DNA of 64,000 nucleotides from Microbispora sp. NBC_01189 (GTDB taxonomy: Bacteria > Actinomycetota > Actinomycetes > Streptosporangiales > Streptosporangiaceae). Numbering within the stretch: position 1 is the stretch's first letter; every line of letters begins with the position of its first letter. Under the pieces are notes generated by a model. That model ran no database searches and was not told where the DNA came from. It worked only from the letters and a program-made list of their open reading frames with translations. The translations under genes were made by a program, and so were the position numbers. Of this stretch, positions 2,927 to 8,994 are shown piece by piece. The stretch lies in NCBI RefSeq assembly GCF_036010665.1, contig NZ_CP108581.1:1022001-1086000 (forward strand), given 5' to 3'.

Positions 2927-3771
2927 CGGGGGAAGATGACGGTCTTGTGGCCGTCCAGCAGCACGCGGTGCTCCGCGTGCCAGCGGACGGCCCGGGCCAG
3001 CGCCTGGCATTCGAGGTCGCGGCCGATCGCGGCGAGGTCCTCCGGGGAGTGGGTGTGGTTCACCCGGGCGACCTCCTGCTCGATGATCGGCCCCTCGTCC
3101 AGGACGGGCGTCACGTAGTGCGCCGTGGCGCCGATCAGCTTCACCCCGCGCGCGTACGCTTGGTGGTACGGCTTGGCGCCCTTGAAGGACGGCAGGAACG
3201 AGTGGTGAATGTTGATCATCCGGCCGGCCAGCTTGGCGCACATCTCCTCGGAGATCACCTGCATGTACCGCGCCAGCACGACCACGTCGGCCTGGTAGTG
3301 GTCGACGAGGGTGCGGATCTCCGCCTCCTGCCGCGACTTGGTCTCCGGCGTGACCGGCAGGTGGTGGTAGTCCACTCCGTACGACTGGGTGAGCGGGCGC
3401 AGGTCGGGATGGTTCGACGCGACTCCGACGATCTCGATCGGCAGCAGGCCCGAGCGCACCCGGTAGAGCAGGTCGTTGAGGCAGTGATCGAACCGGCTGA
3501 CCAGCACCAGCGCCCGCGTGCGCGCCGCGAGGTCGAAGAGCTGGAAGTCCATGGCGAACTCGGGGGCGAGCGCGGCGAACTCCGCCCGCAGCTCGTCGAT
3601 CGCGGGCTCACCGGCGAACTGCACCCGCATGAAGAACCGCTCCGCGACGGGGTCGCCGAACTGCTGGCTCTCGATGATGTTGCAGCCCCGGCGGGCCAGC
3701 AGCCCCGACACGGCCGCGACCACTCCGGGCCGGTCCGGGCAGGACAGGGTCAGCACGTAATCAGCGCTCAT
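2923..3771 (-). CDS. purU: Formyltetrahydrofolate deformylase PurU
   Basis: A 282-residue enzyme that hydrolyses 10-formyl-tetrahydrofolate to formate and tetrahydrofolate, balancing one-carbon pools and feeding formate to PurT-type purine synthesis. Residues 5-80 form an ACT regulatory domain (LTLSCPDRPGVVAAVSGLL). Residues about 85-280 form the formyltransferase fold with the catalytic set Asn187 and His189 (INIHHSFLPS) and Asp225 (VTPVLDEGP). Length and order match PurU exactly. The gene is transcribed toward the peptidase gene and their stop codons overlap, so no separate terminator fits between them. The ATG at 3771 follows a weak GAGG-containing leader. Confidence 0.96.
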   Translation of the reverse strand: MSADYVLTLSCPDRPGVVAAVSGLLARRGCNIIESQQFGDPVAERFFMRVQFAGEPAIDELRAEFAALAPEFAMDFQLFDLAARTRALVLVSRFDHCLNDLLYRVRSGLLPIEIVGVASNHPDLRPLTQSYGVDYHHLPVTPETKSRQEAEIRTLVDHYQADVVVLARYMQVISEEMCAKLAGRMINIHHSFLPSFKGAKPYHQAYARGVKLIGATAHYVTPVLDEGPIIEQEVARVNHTHSPEDLAAIGRDLECQALARAVRWHAEHRVLLDGHKTVIFPR

Positions 3772-4325: not shown

Positions 4326-4345
4326 CCCGCCCGGGCCGGGGTCAG
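4322..4345. terminator. Bidirectional stem-loop at convergent gene ends
   Basis: CTGACCC (4322-4328) pairs with GGGTCAG (4339-4345) around a short GC loop. The TGA of the NUDIX gene and the TGA (read as TCA) of the TPR gene both lie in the stem. It is a plausible intrinsic terminator for both strands, though there is no T-tract, as is common in GC-rich actinomycetes. Confidence 0.5.
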
Positions 4346-6345
4346 CTCTCCTTCTCGTGGTGCTCCAGCGCCGCGCGCACGTCGGGGTCGCCGGGGGCGA
4401 GGGCCAGCGCGCGGCGGAGGTCGAGCAGCGCCTCGCCGCGGCGGCCGAGCGCGTCCAGGGCGGTCGCGCGGTTGAAGTAGAGGGCGGCGTCCTCCCCCAG
4501 CTCGATCGCCCGGGTCAGGTCCTCGACCGCTCCCGGGGCGTCGCCGGTCTCGAAGCGCAGGGTCGCCCGGTTGGCCCAGGCCGAGGCCAGGCGGGCGTCG
4601 GCGGCCAGCGCCGCGTCGAACGCGAGTCCCGCCTCGGCGTACCGTCCGGCCGCCGTCTCCAGCTGCCCCAGCACCCCGTGCAGGTGCGCGTTGCCGGGGT
4701 CCAGGGCCAGCCCCGCCTCCACGTCGCGCCTGGCGGCCTCGTGCTCGCCGAGCATCTCCAGGATCCCGGCCCGGTTGACGTACGCGTCGAGCCAGCCGGG
4801 GTCGAGGTCGAGCACGTGGCCGAGGTCGGCCCGCGCGCCGTCCAGGTCCCCGGCGGCGAGGCGCAGCTCCGCCCGGTTGTAGTAGGCCTCGGGCAGCGGC
4901 GGGCTGACCCGCATCGCGGTCTCGTAGTCGGCCAGCGCCGCCTCGGTCCGCCCCATCTCCAGCAGCAGGTTTCCCCGGTCCAGGTAGTGGTCGGGGAAGA
5001 CCGGGTCGATCCCGATGGCCGCGTCGAAGCCGGCCAGCGCCTCCCGCCGGCGGCCCAGGCGCGCGAGGAGCTGCGCGCGGTTGGCGTGCAGCACCATCCG
5101 GTGCTGGGGATGGGCGTCCGGCGGGAGGTCACGTCGGGCCAGGTCAAGGGCCGACTCGACCAGGCCGAGCGCCTCAGGGAGCCGCCCCTCGCGCAGCTCG
5201 ACGAGCGCCCGGCCGTTCTGGTCGAAGCCGAGCTTGAACGCCCGCTCCCGCCGGTCGGGCAGCAGCGTCGAGATCGCGATCGCCTCGTTGATCCACGCCC
5301 TGGCCCTCGGCAGGTCGCGTCGCGCCGGGTCGCGGTCCCGGGCGTCCAGCATCGCCGTGCCGTACGCCGCGGCGGCGTGGACGACCGGATCGACGCTGGC
5401 CCTCCGCGCCTGGTCGTACAGCTCCCGCGCCTGCTCGGGCCGTCCCAGCCCGGCGAGCGCCGTCGCGGTGCGATGGGCGAAGCGCCACCACGGTTCGGAC
5501 CCCGGCTCGCAGAGCCGCAGCCCGCGCGAGCCCAGCTCCACGACCGCGTGCAGGAACCCCTCGGCGACGCAGTGGTCCACCGCCGCCCACAGCGCCCGCG
5601 TGGCGGCGTCCGGGTCACCGCCGTGCTCCAGGTGGTACGGCACCGCGCCGAGGGCGCTCTCCGCCGACTCGGCGCCGGCGCCGAGCTCGGCCGCCCTCAG
5701 GTCGTGCCGTCGCGCCCGCTCCTCCGGCGTCAGCGACAGGTACGCCCGGTAGGCGCGGGGGTCGTCGGAGGTGCAGTCCGAGGCCAGGTAGTCGTCCGGT
5801 GGCCCGTCCAGGGGCCGCGCCTCCACGGGCCGCATGCCCTCCCACGCCGGCTCGGCGGAGCCCAGGGCGAGCGTGAGATCGGGCACCCGGCGGGCCAGGA
5901 CACCCAGCAGTTCGCGGTCCGCCGGGTCGGCCTCGTGCAGGTTGTCCACCAGCAGCGTTCGCGGCCCCGCGAGATGGTCGCGGACGAACTCCGCGATCCC
6001 GTTGGCGATCCTGAGCGTACGGCGCGGCGCGGGCACGAGGATCCGTTCGTCCTCGGGCAGGCGGGCCTCGATCGTCTGGCGGCGGGCCGGCACCATCGGG
6101 TGCAGGCTGGACGCGACCGCGCGGATCTCGATGTCGTGGTCCGCCACCAGGTCCGGAGAACGCTCCAAGGCGGCAGGAACGATGGCGCGCAGGAGCGCGC
6201 CGCCGATCGTGTACGGACCGCGTAGCCGGCGGTGCCCGTTGACGACGGGCGCCAGAAGGGGAGGCGTCTCCAGTGCGCGGAGCGCCGCCACGCGGTCCCG
6301 GGCGAGGTCCCCCCGGACCCAGATGTGGTTCGGGAGGCGCCTCAC
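4342..6345 (-). CDS. TPR protein with a degenerate STAND-like NTPase N-terminus, coupled to a small peptide gene
   Basis: A 667-residue soluble protein of unknown function. The first 230 residues resemble a STAND/AAA-type domain: a Walker B-like stretch TLLVDNLHEADPADRELL is present, but the segment where a P-loop belongs (RLRGPYTIGGALLRAIVP) has no GxxGxGK[ST]. From about residue 280 to the C-terminus there are about ten tetratricopeptide-type helical repeats (for example DHYLDRGNLLLEMGRTEAAL, ending LRRALALAPGDPDVRAAL), a protein- or peptide-binding scaffold. The GTG start is chosen because it overlaps the stop of the upstream 24-codon ORF as GTGA, giving strict translational coupling; upstream in-frame codons would run through that ORF. 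Ligand and role are unknown. The gene pair invites comparison with peptide-receptor TPR systems, which is inference. Confidence 0.85.
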   Translation of the reverse strand: MRRLPNHIWVRGDLARDRVAALRALETPPLLAPVVNGHRRLRGPYTIGGALLRAIVPAALERSPDLVADHDIEIRAVASSLHPMVPARRQTIEARLPEDERILVPAPRRTLRIANGIAEFVRDHLAGPRTLLVDNLHEADPADRELLGVLARRVPDLTLALGSAEPAWEGMRPVEARPLDGPPDDYLASDCTSDDPRAYRAYLSLTPEERARRHDLRAAELGAGAESAESALGAVPYHLEHGGDPDAATRALWAAVDHCVAEGFLHAVVELGSRGLRLCEPGSEPWWRFAHRTATALAGLGRPEQARELYDQARRASVDPVVHAAAAYGTAMLDARDRDPARRDLPRARAWINEAIAISTLLPDRRERAFKLGFDQNGRALVELREGRLPEALGLVESALDLARRDLPPDAHPQHRMVLHANRAQLLARLGRRREALAGFDAAIGIDPVFPDHYLDRGNLLLEMGRTEAALADYETAMRVSPPLPEAYYNRAELRLAAGDLDGARADLGHVLDLDPGWLDAYVNRAGILEMLGEHEAARRDVEAGLALDPGNAHLHGVLGQLETAAGRYAEAGLAFDAALAADARLASAWANRATLRFETGDAPGAVEDLTRAIELGEDAALYFNRATALDALGRRGEALLDLRRALALAPGDPDVRAALEHHEKES

Positions 6346-6416
6346 CCCTTGTGAATGACGCTCGACGTGCCGCTGAGCTTCGTCGTTCCCGGTTTGCGGA
6401 TAATGATCTTCTTCAT
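6342..6416 (-). CDS. 24-residue basic Ser/Thr-rich peptide, candidate signalling or RiPP-like precursor
   Basis: A short ORF starts at ATG 6416 (an adjacent ATG at 6419 is in frame) and ends with a TGA that overlaps the GTG start of the TPR gene. The peptide begins MKKIIIRKPG and ends SSVIHKG. It has six lysine/arginine residues, six Ser/Thr and no Cys or acidic residue, and no signal peptide. A GGAAAGAGG ribosome site lies just upstream, and a 17-bp-spaced promoter-like pair lies 35-60 bases further up. The short AT-richer codons differ from the surrounding genes. Stop-start overlap, ribosome site and promoter together support a real gene. The peptide is not recognised; a RiPP precursor, a peptide ligand for the TPR protein or simply a coupling leader are all possible. 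Confidence 0.6.
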   Translation of the reverse strand: MKKIIIRKPGTTKLSGTSSVIHKG

Positions 6417-6451
6417 CATGCCTCTTTCCCCACGCTTGCGGACAAGGCACA

Positions 6452-6480
6452 AGTATTCGCAGCGATCAGCTATCCGCCAA
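6452..6480 (-). promoter_or_regulatory. Promoter-like pair for the peptide-TPR operon
   Basis: On the minus strand TTGGCG (6480-6475) is followed after exactly 17 bases by AATACT (6457-6452), 4/6 matches to each housekeeping hexamer. Transcription would start near 6445, leaving a leader of about 30 bases before the peptide ATG. The region is clearly more AT-rich than its surroundings. Confidence 0.5.
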
Positions 6481-6496
6481 GAGATGTAAGCATTAT

Positions 6497-7063
6497 CTAT
6501 CGCGGGAAAAGCGGGGAAACGATGGCGCTCAGCTGCTTCTCTATATAAATCACGACATTGTCGCCTCGGGCTTCGCGCCGCAACTCCCGCCATCCGGATT
6601 TGCGGTAGAGCGCCAGCGCGGCGACCTGCCGCACCGTGGTGTCGCCGCGCAGCGTGGAGTAGCCGAGACGGCGGGCGCACTCCTCAAGCGCCTCCGTCAT
6701 CCGCGCGCCGTAACCACGCCGCTGGTGGTCGGGGTGGACCCGGAGCCGGCACATCTCGGCCGTGTGGTCGTCGATGCGCCGCAGGCCCCCCATGGCGACG
6801 ATCCCCGCCCGGGCCGCCTCCCCGACGAGGAAGTCACCCCCGGATGCCAGGTAGACCTCGGTGATCCGGGGAAAGTCGTCGTCGTAGTAGACGCCGTCAC
6901 CCGGCACGACGCCCACCTGGGCCAGGCCGATCTGGTGGAGGGACCACACGGCGTCGAGGTCCGGCCACCGATACCGCCGGATCCGCAGCGGGGCGGCCTC
7001 ACTCTCACCGGCTCCCCGGGGGGCGTCCCGCTCCAGGCCACCCCCCGGCGCTTCTTCTGCCAC
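6497..7063 (-). CDS. GNAT-family N-acetyltransferase
   Basis: A 188-residue protein. After a 25-residue variable N-terminus, residues about 26-165 form a GNAT fold with the acetyl-CoA-binding motif A MCRLRVHPDHQRRGYGARM (Q/R-x-x-G-x-G/A as RRGYGA), followed by a typical ALYRKSGW segment. Substrate is unknown; the family acetylates small molecules or protein amino groups. It begins only 6 bases after the stop of the XRE/TPR regulator, so the two are probably co-transcribed. The C-terminal IEKQLSAIVSPLFPR tail is encoded by AT-richer DNA. Confidence 0.88.
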   Translation of the reverse strand: MAEEAPGGGLERDAPRGAGESEAAPLRIRRYRWPDLDAVWSLHQIGLAQVGVVPGDGVYYDDDFPRITEVYLASGGDFLVGEAARAGIVAMGGLRRIDDHTAEMCRLRVHPDHQRRGYGARMTEALEECARRLGYSTLRGDTTVRQVAALALYRKSGWRELRREARGDNVVIYIEKQLSAIVSPLFPR

Positions 7064-7069
7064 GCATCC

Positions 7070-8662
7070 TCACCCGACGTCCTTGATCAGGTCCTTGGGG
7101 ATCCCCACCCGGCTCTCCGCGAGCATCTCCCGGAACCGCCTGAGCTCGGGCGAGTCGCCGTGCTTGGCCCGCACCGCCTTCTCCAGGTCGTATCCGGGCT
7201 TGAGCAGGAGGTCGGTCCGGTGGTCCTTGTCGACCAACTCGATCGCGGCCCGGCCCAGATCGAGCGCGGCCTCGACGTCGCCCTCGATCAGCCGGCACAG
7301 CGCCCGGTCGAAGCGGATCAGGGTCTGGTCGAGCAGGTCCTCGCCCGAATACTGGGAGAGCGCCTTCTCCAGGATCACGTCGGCCTCCACCGTCTGCCCC
7401 AGCCTCACCAGAACGTCACCCTGGTAGAAGTAGAGCTGCCGCTCGGTGTAGCCGAAGGCCGGGTCCTCCCGGTCGCTGTCGTTCATCTGCGAGAAGGCCG
7501 TCCTGGCCCGGTGCAGCGCCCGCTTGGCCTCCTCCACCACGTCGTGCCGCGACCCGCCGAGACCGGCGATCTTCGCCAGCGCTCTCGCCTCGACCACCGG
7601 CGCCATGGTCCGCGCCGCGCACGGCGTCGTGCCGGCCAGGTCCCGGCTCTTCTTGGCGAGCGTCAGCGCCTCACGGGGGTCTCCGTAGTAGAGCGGGACC
7701 AGCGCCTCCCGGGCGGTCACCCAGGCGCGCAGGGCACGGTCGCCGGTCTCGTCGGCCGCCATCCGGCCGGTGCGGAAGAACGAGCGGGCCAGCCGCTGGT
7801 CACCTAGATCGATCATGAGCATTCCGGACAGCCCGGCCAGCTGGGCGGACATCCGGCACAGCCGCTCCTGCATCTCGACGGGCTGGCGGTGGTTCAGCGC
7901 CTTGCGCACGGCGGCGAACTCCAGCATCACGTCACAGAGCAGCCGTACCGGCGGCGTGTTCATGTACTGCCGGCCGAACCCCGAGGTGGCCTGTTCCCAC
8001 TGGTCGAGCATCGCCGGGGAGACGGTGGCCGTCACCATCGTCTCGTCCATCCGGCGCCGGAGGTTCTCCACGGCGCCGAGCACTTCCTCGTTGAGCTCGT
8101 TCAGGCCGGCCGCGCTCACGGTGCCGCCGGCAAGGAGCCTCAACAGCGTCCTCCTCAGCACGTTCTCGTCCTCCTCGCCCCCGTCCAACGAAGGGGTGCA
8201 GTTGTCCGGCGAGGCCGGCGACGCCGGCCTCGCCCACGGAGCGGGTGAAATGCGTGGTCTGTTGTCTTCGCAGGCGTCGTCGATGACCTCGTGTCCGTGG
8301 CCGCAGATGCACGGGCCGTCGTAGCCCAGAGCGAGTGGTTCGACGCGGTAGACCGAGCACAGGTAGTGGAGGTATTCCGGGCCGGGCCGCTTCATGCCCG
8401 ACTCGTACGCGGACAGTAGTGTCTCGCCGATGCCGGGCACCGACTTGCCGTCCCTCTCGAAGAGGGCACGCACCTGCTCGATGACATCGGCCAGCGCCAC
8501 GCCGTGCGACAGGCGGTGGGCCTTGATCCGCGTCGTGCCGAACCGCTGCCCGCAGGCGTCGTAGACCTGCCCGGCGATCTGGGCCAGGGTGTACCCGGAC
8601 GCCAGACCTCGCGCCCGGACCTTCCGCGCGATCTCCGTCTCCCTGTGCTGCCTGCCGGCCAT
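7070..8662 (-). CDS. XRE-type helix-turn-helix regulator with TPR-like C-terminal region
   Basis: A 530-residue protein with an N-terminal DNA-binding region (residues about 1-110, including YTLAQIAGQVYDACGQRFGTTRIKAHRLSHG and an ETLLSAYESGMKRPGPEYLHYLCSVY helix-turn-helix-like stretch). A conserved CICGHGHEVID motif and a low-complexity linker follow, then about 350 residues of TPR-like helices (for example LYFYQGDVLVRLGQTVEADVIL). Such proteins are abundant in filamentous actinomycetes, where they pair with small partners and regulate development or secondary metabolism. The ATG at 8662 is preceded by GAGAGGGG at a good distance. It is divergent from the 86-residue protein at 8995 and precedes the GNAT gene. 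Confidence 0.85.
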   Translation of the reverse strand: MAGRQHRETEIARKVRARGLASGYTLAQIAGQVYDACGQRFGTTRIKAHRLSHGVALADVIEQVRALFERDGKSVPGIGETLLSAYESGMKRPGPEYLHYLCSVYRVEPLALGYDGPCICGHGHEVIDDACEDNRPRISPAPWARPASPASPDNCTPSLDGGEEDENVLRRTLLRLLAGGTVSAAGLNELNEEVLGAVENLRRRMDETMVTATVSPAMLDQWEQATSGFGRQYMNTPPVRLLCDVMLEFAAVRKALNHRQPVEMQERLCRMSAQLAGLSGMLMIDLGDQRLARSFFRTGRMAADETGDRALRAWVTAREALVPLYYGDPREALTLAKKSRDLAGTTPCAARTMAPVVEARALAKIAGLGGSRHDVVEEAKRALHRARTAFSQMNDSDREDPAFGYTERQLYFYQGDVLVRLGQTVEADVILEKALSQYSGEDLLDQTLIRFDRALCRLIEGDVEAALDLGRAAIELVDKDHRTDLLLKPGYDLEKAVRAKHGDSPELRRFREMLAESRVGIPKDLIKDVG

Positions 8663-8994
8663 CCCGGCCCCTCTCTCGTGGCCCGGCCGCACTCGCAGCC
8701 GCCTGTTCGACCGATCCCGAATCGGTCACGGAGGGTGACTCAGCCGTCGCACTCCGCCCACACCATAATGATGGAACACCCTTTGCGAGGCCAAGCCCCC
8801 AACTTGAACAGATTGCCTAAGGATCGCCTCCCGGTGGGGGGTTTCTTTCCCCCGACTGGGGTTTTCCTGCACCGCTCTTCTTGACCCGGCGTTGACCTGG
8901 GCGAGTCAGTGGGCCATGTTGGGCGCACCAGAGTGACCGAGTGAAAACGCAAAGTACACAATCCGCCGGGAACGGAAATGAAGGAGGGCTGGCG
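8663..8994. promoter_or_regulatory. Divergent intergenic region with promoter-like elements for both flanking genes
   Basis: A 332-base gap between the XRE regulator and the 86-residue protein. On the plus strand TTGACC (8892-8897) and CATGTT (8915-8920) are 17 bases apart and would start transcription near 8927. On the minus strand TTGGCC followed after 18 bases by CATTAT (around 8765-8795) could drive the regulator. A run GGTGGGGGG...TTTCCCCC near 8831-8856 could form a weak hairpin. No further gene is seen. Confidence 0.35.

What the first reader, a model, noticed from the sequence alone, without database searches (positions are those of the whole stretch)
6342..6480. A 24-residue peptide gene strictly coupled to a TPR/degenerate-STAND protein
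Seen directly: a short ORF with its own promoter-like pair (17-bp spacing), a good ribosome site, and a stop codon that overlaps the GTG start of the 667-residue TPR gene as GTGA. The product is basic, Ser/Thr-rich, without Cys or signal peptide, starting MKKIIIRKPG and ending SSVIHKG. Peptide genes placed next to TPR proteins are known in RRNPP quorum sensing (Rap-Phr, PlcR-PapR), but this TPR protein has no DNA-binding domain and the order is reversed. Many RiPP precursors are also this small. No modification enzyme is adjacent, so this may be a new kind of peptide-receptor or peptide-scaffold cassette.
Basis: partly seen in the sequence, partly recalled or inferred. Interest (0 to 1): 0.75.

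Follow-up and report, generated by a model that had tools for sequence, protein, structure and literature searches.

The report
Tiny peptide gene paired with TPR
A 24-residue bacterial peptide gene is real, strongly conserved and, in the genomes sampled, found only where its large TPR partner gene is also present; it is related to an apparently undescribed RiPP-like three-gene cassette, so it may be a new peptide-receptor or peptide-scaffold system.

Summary
The peptide gene is real: window 6416-6342 (-), MKKIIIRKPGTTKLSGTSSVIHKG, its stop overlapping the GTG of the TPR gene (GTGA). It belongs to a large peptide family for which I found no description. The best 80 of 483 TPR relatives all carry such a peptide upstream. 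In 200 sampled family genomes, 95 have the TPR gene; all 92 genomes with a peptide hit are among them, and the other 3 hold divergent peptides found by eye. Peptides without an adjacent TPR gene (14 of 145) all sit in TPR-bearing genomes. The frame is under purifying selection (pN/pS about 0.26). Related cassettes, also in Lentzea and Streptomyces, insert a membrane M50-like protease whose N-terminal domain is predicted to fold as a RiPP recognition element. The TPR model resembles the OGT superhelix, with Asn invariant or nearly so at four of seven ladder-like positions. I read the window's pair as a protease-less relative of a RiPP-like cassette in which the TPR superhelix grips the peptide; binding, processing and function are inferred. 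A leader-only reading is contradicted across the family; RRNPP membership is not met. The promoter claim was not confirmed.

The parts
6342..6416 (-). 24-residue peptide gene MKKIIIRKPGTTKLSGTSSVIHKG (alternative first ATG at 6419)
   Evidence: family conservation; pN/pS 0.257 among 32 distinct class A sequences with cis TPR
6372..6416 (-). leader-like conserved half, codons 1-15 (MKKIIIRKPGTTKLS), pattern shared by the peptide classes
   Evidence: alignment of 27 diverse members of classes A-D: M1, K2, G10 invariant, K8 and L14 at least 90%
6345..6371 (-). core-like half, codons 16-24 (GTSSVIHKG), the most conserved part at this type of locus
   Evidence: pN/pS 0.136 against 0.353 for codons 2-15; residue table
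6342..6345 (-). GTGA: stop of the peptide overlapping the start of the TPR gene
   Evidence: such an overlap (GTGA, or TTGA once) at 34 of 35 class A loci with TPR
6421..6431 (-). ribosome-binding site GGGGAAAGAGG
   Evidence: sequence
4342..6345 (-). 667-aa partner: degenerate STAND-like N-terminal domain plus OGT-like TPR superhelix
   Evidence: Pfam; model pLDDT 95.9; Foldseek best hit 1w3b OGT TPR, E 4.3e-14; Asn conservation; no P-loop
6497..7063 (-). GNAT-family acetyltransferase, frequent upstream neighbour of this type of locus (possible but unproven modifier)
   Evidence: Pfam PF00583 E 8e-14; upstream within 250 bases at 33 of 42 and within 2.5 kb at 39 of 42 class A loci, 0 of 41 other loci at either limit
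7070..8692 (-). NsdA-family TPR-like regulatory protein, frequent upstream neighbour
   Evidence: NF053720 138.5 bits against cut-off 75; 40 of 42 class A loci

Best explanation
The 24-residue ORF is a protein-coding gene whose product works together with the TPR protein. Shown by comparison: peptide and TPR co-occur in the sampled genomes without exception at genome level, usually side by side, and the peptide frame is under purifying selection, also in a small set of loci where no TPR gene is adjacent. The pair is related to a three-gene RiPP-like cassette: short precursor, membrane M50-like protein with a predicted N-terminal RRE fold, TPR protein. Inferred: the three-gene form is ancestral (the tree was rooted on it by choice); there the RRE holds the MKKIxIRKxGxVRLT leader and the protease cuts or exports the C-terminal part; in the window's form the protease has been lost and the peptide stays in the cell as the dedicated ligand or substrate of the TPR superhelix, which may grip an extended peptide backbone with conserved asparagines as OGT does. 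Overlapping translation would deliver the peptide to its partner as it is made.
For: Peptide upstream of all 80 kept TPR relatives (best 80 of 483; 79 by pattern; L172 by eye). 200 family genomes at the search thresholds: 92 both, 0 peptide only, 3 TPR only, 105 neither; divergent peptides were then found by eye in the 3. 14 of 145 peptides lack a TPR in cis, all 14 in genomes with a TPR elsewhere; in G016 and G051 the one peptide and one TPR found are unlinked. A more distant TPR branch has its own peptide (MRKMTVRRKAGLRLLSGARRLWIEWCW type) at all 10 listed loci, 3 of which supplied the query. pN/pS 0.23-0.43 in classes A, B, C; wrong frames of class A 1.3-1.5. The M50-like gene was found at 25 loci (20 distinct), all of class C/D, and at none of the other loci given; the same trio in three genomes of other families. 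RRE fold: Foldseek's best hits are RREs. Asn 422, 490, 524 in 56 of 56 and 625 in 55 of 56. TPR tree largely follows peptide class. 44 of 95 TPR genomes have no RRE/M50 match at 1e-20.
Against: No direct evidence of translation, or that TPR and peptide bind; no complex could be modelled. The RRE/M50 model is moderate (pLDDT 69.9, 10 sequences) and no Foldseek hit reached E 0.001 (RRE hits from 0.08). The ladder is partial: equivalent positions are mostly Asp (456), Val/Ala (558) and Asn in only 23 of 56 (592), and the position assignment is mine. Conservation of the last codons at class A loci is partly nucleotide constraint (start/stop overlap, AAGGGG). At 6 class A loci without TPR the core is less constrained (0.495), so some may be decaying, and L052 has lost its stop. 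Genomes are related, so counts are not independent. TPR genes L202, L205, L206 lack an adjacent peptide that I could find; 2 of the 14 unlinked peptides (G094, G069) may be contig breaks and one (G070:C10) is a partial match.
Confidence: 0.6

Rival explanations
1. Ordinary RiPP precursor: the peptide is modified by enzymes acting in trans (or by the neighbouring GNAT), cleaved after the leader and exported; the TPR protein is a maturation scaffold, chaperone or immunity factor.
For: Leader/core layout; predicted RRE/M50 gene in class C/D cassettes; variable Cys/Tyr-rich cores in class D, Trp in two of the three from other families; flavin enzymes beside several class C/D cassettes; GNAT within 2.5 kb upstream at 39 of 42 class A loci.
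Against: 44 of 95 TPR genomes show no RRE/M50 homologue at 1e-20; I saw no tailoring enzyme common to the classes; the class A core lacks Cys and is more conserved than the leader; this GNAT is at 0 of 41 other loci; no exporter in the window's two-gene unit.
Confidence: 0.27
2. Quorum-sensing peptide and RRNPP-like TPR receptor.
For: Peptide gene beside a TPR protein; dedicated pairing.
Against: No evident signal peptide or exporter (inspection); no DNA-binding domain found in the TPR protein; sequence nearly constant across genera, whereas pheromones diversify (recalled); the 50 fold-search rows shown are led by OGT and name no RRNPP protein.
Confidence: 0.06
3. Translational leader only: the ORF exists to couple or regulate TPR translation and its product does nothing.
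For: Start/stop overlap at 34 of 35 class A loci with TPR; AAGGGG at the end of the ORF.
Against: Same peptide family in class B, where the TPR start lies some 16-168 bases downstream where the ORF listing resolves it, and in class C/D with a 1.2-kb gene between; peptides unlinked from any TPR, yet only in TPR genomes; amino-acid-level selection.
Confidence: 0.03

Closest known systems
RiPP pathways with M50 membrane proteases (epipeptide EpeP; TglG/TmoG of pearlins)
   Same: Short precursor with conserved leader-like half; the relatives' M50-like protein carries HExxH; M50 proteases are known to act in RiPP maturation (PMC10885120, passages seen).
   Different: I saw no radical SAM or lanthipeptide-type enzyme in the cassettes (by inspection); a TPR gene accompanies the peptide; the window's class has no protease.
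Lasso-peptide RRE proteins TbiB1 and TfuB1
   Same: Among the best structural matches of the N-terminal domain of the relatives' M50-like protein.
   Different: There discrete proteins; here fused to a membrane metalloprotease-like domain; no lasso cyclase was seen in the cassettes I read.
OGT TPR superhelix
   Same: Top Foldseek match; conserved asparagines at ladder-like positions (ladder described in PMC5967971, passages seen).
   Different: No glycosyltransferase domain; instead a degenerate STAND-like N-terminal domain; ladder incomplete.
RRNPP systems (Rap-Phr, PlcR-PapR; recalled)
   Same: TPR protein encoded beside a small peptide.
   Different: No DNA-binding domain, no evident export signal, conserved rather than strain-specific peptide.

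Membership tests
RiPP precursor / RiPP cluster | short genetically encoded precursor with conserved leader and separate core | tested here: met
   27-member alignment of classes A-D; class E shares the pattern by eye
RiPP precursor / RiPP cluster | RRE or other leader-binding enzyme in the cluster | tested here: not met
   Not found at the window's locus or at the class A/B loci tested; present at all class C/D loci tested, 25 loci of which 20 distinct
RiPP precursor / RiPP cluster | post-translational modification of the core | not testable with these tools
   needs mass spectrometry
RRNPP quorum sensing | secreted, processed pheromone | not testable with these tools
   no signal-like segment or exporter seen by inspection; secretion itself needs experiment
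RRNPP quorum sensing | TPR receptor with HTH or Rap-type output | tested here: not met
   Pfam and NCBIfam find TPRs, a weak AAA_16 and no HTH
STAND NTPase | Walker A P-loop | tested here: not met
   pattern in the first 260 residues: 0 of 56 relatives
RRE domain (relatives' M50-like protein) | three strands then three helices, PqqD-like fold | tested here: met
   predicted E14-18 E21-26 E31-36 H37-47 H52-63 H69-78; Foldseek probability 1.00 to TbiB1 and 6jx3, TM by target 0.66-0.71, but E 0.08-0.4 and none at 0.001
M50 metalloprotease (relatives) | HExxH and a downstream Asp ligand | tested here: inconclusive
   H164, E165, H168 and D278 invariant in 10 of 10; D278 as ligand is recalled; Pfam gave no hit and activity is untested

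The most novel reading that the evidence does not exclude
A new kind of peptide system: a ribosomal peptide descended from a RiPP precursor that needs no tailoring enzyme and no protease, stays in the cell and acts as an obligate, co-translationally delivered ligand or small subunit of a TPR/pseudo-STAND protein, with several peptide classes whose TPR partners form matching branches.
Probability: 0.33. Interest if true: 0.85.

Novelty: new variant of a known kind. Interest (0 to 1): 0.7.

Why it matters
It gives a sharply defined, testable pair: a peptide of 24 residues and one partner protein that occur together in about half of the 200 sampled family genomes and were never found apart at genome level there. 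It points to an unnamed RiPP-like cassette (peptide, RRE/M50-like protein, TPR) present in several actinomycete families, unrecognised by Pfam and NCBIfam here, and shows a natural series of three-gene, two-gene and unlinked forms.

Tried and rejected
NCBIfam and Pfam scans of peptides 1 and 3: no hit. Pfam and NCBIfam on the M50-like protein of the own genome: no Pfam hit, one chance-level NCBIfam hit; on three of its paralogues: none. PADLOC: only marginal matches, no defence link. Profile comparison of the TPR protein with the SARP regulator: no convincing relation. Literature: peptide strings and TPR/RRE/M50 term combinations (listings and abstract starts seen) gave no description; 'find' in the main texts of PMC12710340, PMC7470986 and PMC7794033 shows no M50 or TPR. 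Most subscription journals are not in that library. Rejected: chance ORF, leader-only ORF, RRNPP membership.

Dropped or partial: 80 of the 145 peptide places that I transcribed were fetched with flanks, plus the 3 own loci; some genomic places came in twice, once from unnamed and once from named genomes (for class C/D, 5 pairs by equal contig length). The 56-row TPR alignment used the window and 55 of the 80 named loci; the other 25 were near-copies, partial matches, or out of frame (L165, L170). The tree used 49 of the 80, the 3 own and 4 more. TPR counts used listed hits above about 560 bits; the distant class E hits were counted apart, and that list was cut. pN/pS pools all pairs, uncorrected for relatedness, with pS near saturation; class D and E were not computed. 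One search used unequal distance limits for the GNAT; one search repeats it with equal ones (same 39 of 42 and 0 of 41).

Full report
The observation. On the minus strand, ATG at 6416 opens a 24-codon frame, MKKIIIRKPGTTKLSGTSSVIHKG, ending at TGA 6344-6342; GTGA (6345-6342) holds the GTG of a 667-aa ORF ending at 4342. A ribosome site lies at 6431-6421. The sigma-70 scan found no promoter-like pair in 6330-7100. Upstream on the same strand lie a GNAT gene (7063-6497) and an NsdA-family regulator (8692-7070).

The genome holds three such loci. A search of the window's own genome with the peptide found a second copy, and the TPR protein has two full-length paralogues. Copy 2, MKKIIVHKPGTAKLSAAASPRHLT, precedes a TPR paralogue downstream of genes that I read as smc- and ftsY-like from their translations. 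Copy 3, MKKIKIRKAGPVRLTAAACSIYKNPN, is followed by a membrane protein with HExxH and then the third TPR paralogue, with a SARP-type regulator divergent.

A family of peptides. An HMM of the three peptides matched 145 places that I transcribed, in 92 of 200 sampled genomes of the family, at E up to 1.2e-4; weaker matches elsewhere I took as chance. I fetched 80 of the 145 with flanks and with the three own loci read 83 peptides. Class A (window type) ends in ...SVIHKG or close variants; class B in ...ASPKHVG, ASAKHEG, ASPRHLT; class C is ...RLTAAACSIYKNxN and variants; class D is diverse with a Tyr and usually Cys. The N-terminal half is shared: M1, K2 and G10 invariant, K8 and L14 at least 90% in 27 diverse members.

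The TPR gene comes with the peptide. Clustering put a TPR homologue at 73 of 83 loci; a direct search of the 10 others found none. The reverse search with a TPR alignment in named genomes kept the best 80 of 483 relatives (Microbispora, Planotetraspora, Herbidospora, Nonomuraea, Streptosporangium, Actinomadura, Lentzea, Streptomyces sp. NRRL S-350 and others): 79 had the peptide upstream by pattern and the eightieth, L172, by eye. In the 200 family genomes: both 92, peptide only 0, TPR only 3, neither 105. In the three TPR-only genomes I found divergent peptides: MKKIAVHKPEIKQLAGKAATAHGAP in G115 and a VKQVVVHKKGTVSLRGKASAKHA form in G075 and G103. 131 of 145 peptides have a TPR in cis (same contig and strand, within 4.5 kb); the other 14 are all in genomes with a TPR elsewhere. 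Of these 14, two (G094, G069) may be contig breaks and one (G070:C10) is a partial match. In G016 and G051 the one peptide and the one TPR found lie on different large contigs. A more distant TPR branch looked peptide-less until its upstream frames were read: it has MRKMTVRRKAGLRLLSGARRLWIEWCW-type peptides, present at all 10 TPR loci listed for that branch in a cut list, 3 of the 10 having supplied the query; this class E has 11 peptides in 200 genomes. Against this: TPR genes L202, L205 and L206 have no adjacent peptide that I could find. Beyond the family the peptide is rare: in a class-wide draw 18 of 394 genomes matched, 15 of them of the window's family.

Selection. Among 38 distinct class A sequences pN/pS is 0.27 in frame and 1.3-1.5 in the other frames; third codon positions vary most and the flanks vary more than the ORF. 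With a cis TPR (32 distinct) the ratio is 0.257, leader 0.353 and core 0.136; without cis TPR (6 distinct) 0.295, leader 0.241 and core 0.495; class B 0.427; class C 0.229. In class B and C the core is less constrained than the leader (0.531 against 0.402; 0.421 against 0.127); only at class A loci with TPR is the core the more conserved half. Part of that may be nucleotide constraint, since a start/stop overlap is present at 34 of 35 class A loci with TPR against 4 of 7 without. Loss of the TPR seems to relax the core, which fits a core that contacts the TPR, but six sequences are few, and L052 has lost its stop codon.

The protease-bearing relatives. tblastn over 160 fetched loci, the own loci and the window found the M50-like gene at 25 loci (20 distinct by contig), all of class C/D, and at none of the others; later the same gene was found at L203 and L204, which have an extended class D-like peptide. 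In three genomes of other families the order is peptide, M50-like gene, TPR, and I saw no other neighbour shared by the three. AlphaFold gives the M50-like protein an N-terminal three-strand, three-helix domain (pLDDT 69.9). Foldseek's best hits are RREs: TbiB1 with leader peptide and the lasso B1 protein 6jx3 (probability 1.00, E 0.08-0.4), ThcOx (0.97), lower down McbB and a sactipeptide synthase (0.75-0.82, E 1.6-2.5); channel and other membrane proteins in between have probability 0.15 or less, and nothing reaches E 0.001. A sequence profile also touched TfuB1 (6jx3) weakly (E 0.68). HExxH is invariant in 10 of 10. RRE/M50 matches occur in 60 of 200 genomes at 1e-20, many of them distant paralogues, some beside ThiF-like genes, so this protein is probably a wider RiPP part. 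44 of the 95 TPR genomes have none: the two-gene pair can do without it.

The TPR protein. The model is confident (pLDDT 95.9) and matches the OGT TPR superhelix. At what I take, from the helix list, to be ladder positions, Asn is 56/56 at 422, 490 and 524, 55/56 at 625 and 23/56 at 592; 456 is mostly Asp and 558 Val or Ala. Other conserved Asn are 377 (56/56) and 459 (55/56). In OGT an asparagine ladder contacts the peptide backbone in the superhelix channel (PMC5967971, passages seen). The N-terminal domain matches AAA_16 only weakly and lacks a P-loop in 56 of 56. The TPR tree largely follows the peptide classes: A and C (with D) need one change each, B three, against shuffled means of 17.1, 10.2 and 16.7; near relatives inflate such contrasts, the root was set on class C by me, and class E was not in the tree.

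Reading. Shown by comparison: a selected coding frame; genome-level dependence on the TPR gene in the sample; kinship with a precursor/RRE-M50/TPR cassette. Inferred: the leader binds the RRE in class C/D; the TPR superhelix holds the peptide; in classes A, B and E the peptide acts without the protease; the three-gene form came first. The GNAT within 250 bases upstream of 33 of 42 class A loci (39 within 2.5 kb; 0 of 41 other loci) could modify class A peptides, but at several Nonomuraea loci a gene of the EamA transporter kind separates them and it may simply be a conserved neighbour.

Known or new. Searches of the held library for the peptide strings and for TPR/RRE/M50 combinations found no description (passages in 101-103). 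As a RiPP the window's unit fails the leader-binding-enzyme test, so I do not file it as a RiPP; it works like, or derives from, one. It also fails RRNPP membership on the receptor's output domain. I rate it a new variant of a known kind, with a categorically new peptide-ligand system not excluded.

Noticed in passing
L009 5024-9856 (own genome C1:4473023 onwards): Class C cassette in the window's own genome: SARP, MKKIKIRKAGPVRLTAAACSIYKNPN, RRE/M50-like gene, TPR, then an OYE-family FMN oxidoreductase. Of the 83 loci read, the 10 of class C all have the SARP, and 7 of the 10 have the OYE gene after the TPR (Pfam run on one OYE and one SARP).
   Followed up: partly
L106, L117, L180: Flavin-reductase-like genes (PF01613) sit after the TPR at class C/D loci without the OYE gene, hinting at a flavin step.
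   Followed up: partly
L242 about 5400-5900; L240 about 5767: Tiny peptides such as MDIEVREVEPLKATICIPS (three similar copies) and MTIEVEEIETVKSTDFSWN upstream of RRE/M50 paralogues: possibly another very-short-precursor RiPP family.
   Followed up: no
L236 4887-7224; L235 (own genome C1:3542032-3543126), L237, L238, L241: RRE/M50 paralogues next to other enzyme genes, confirmed as ThiF family only at L236.
   Followed up: partly
L209-L211 and eight further genomes: Class E peptides with an almost invariant Trp-rich end (W[IF]EWCW in the three read) upstream of a distant TPR branch, 11 of 200 genomes.
   Followed up: partly
L203 and L204 about 3500-3760: N-terminally extended peptide MKSTTKIKKITVRRTSDVRLTSATCQCTYPAAN (L203) and a near-copy (L204) before an RRE/M50-like gene and TPR.
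   Followed up: partly
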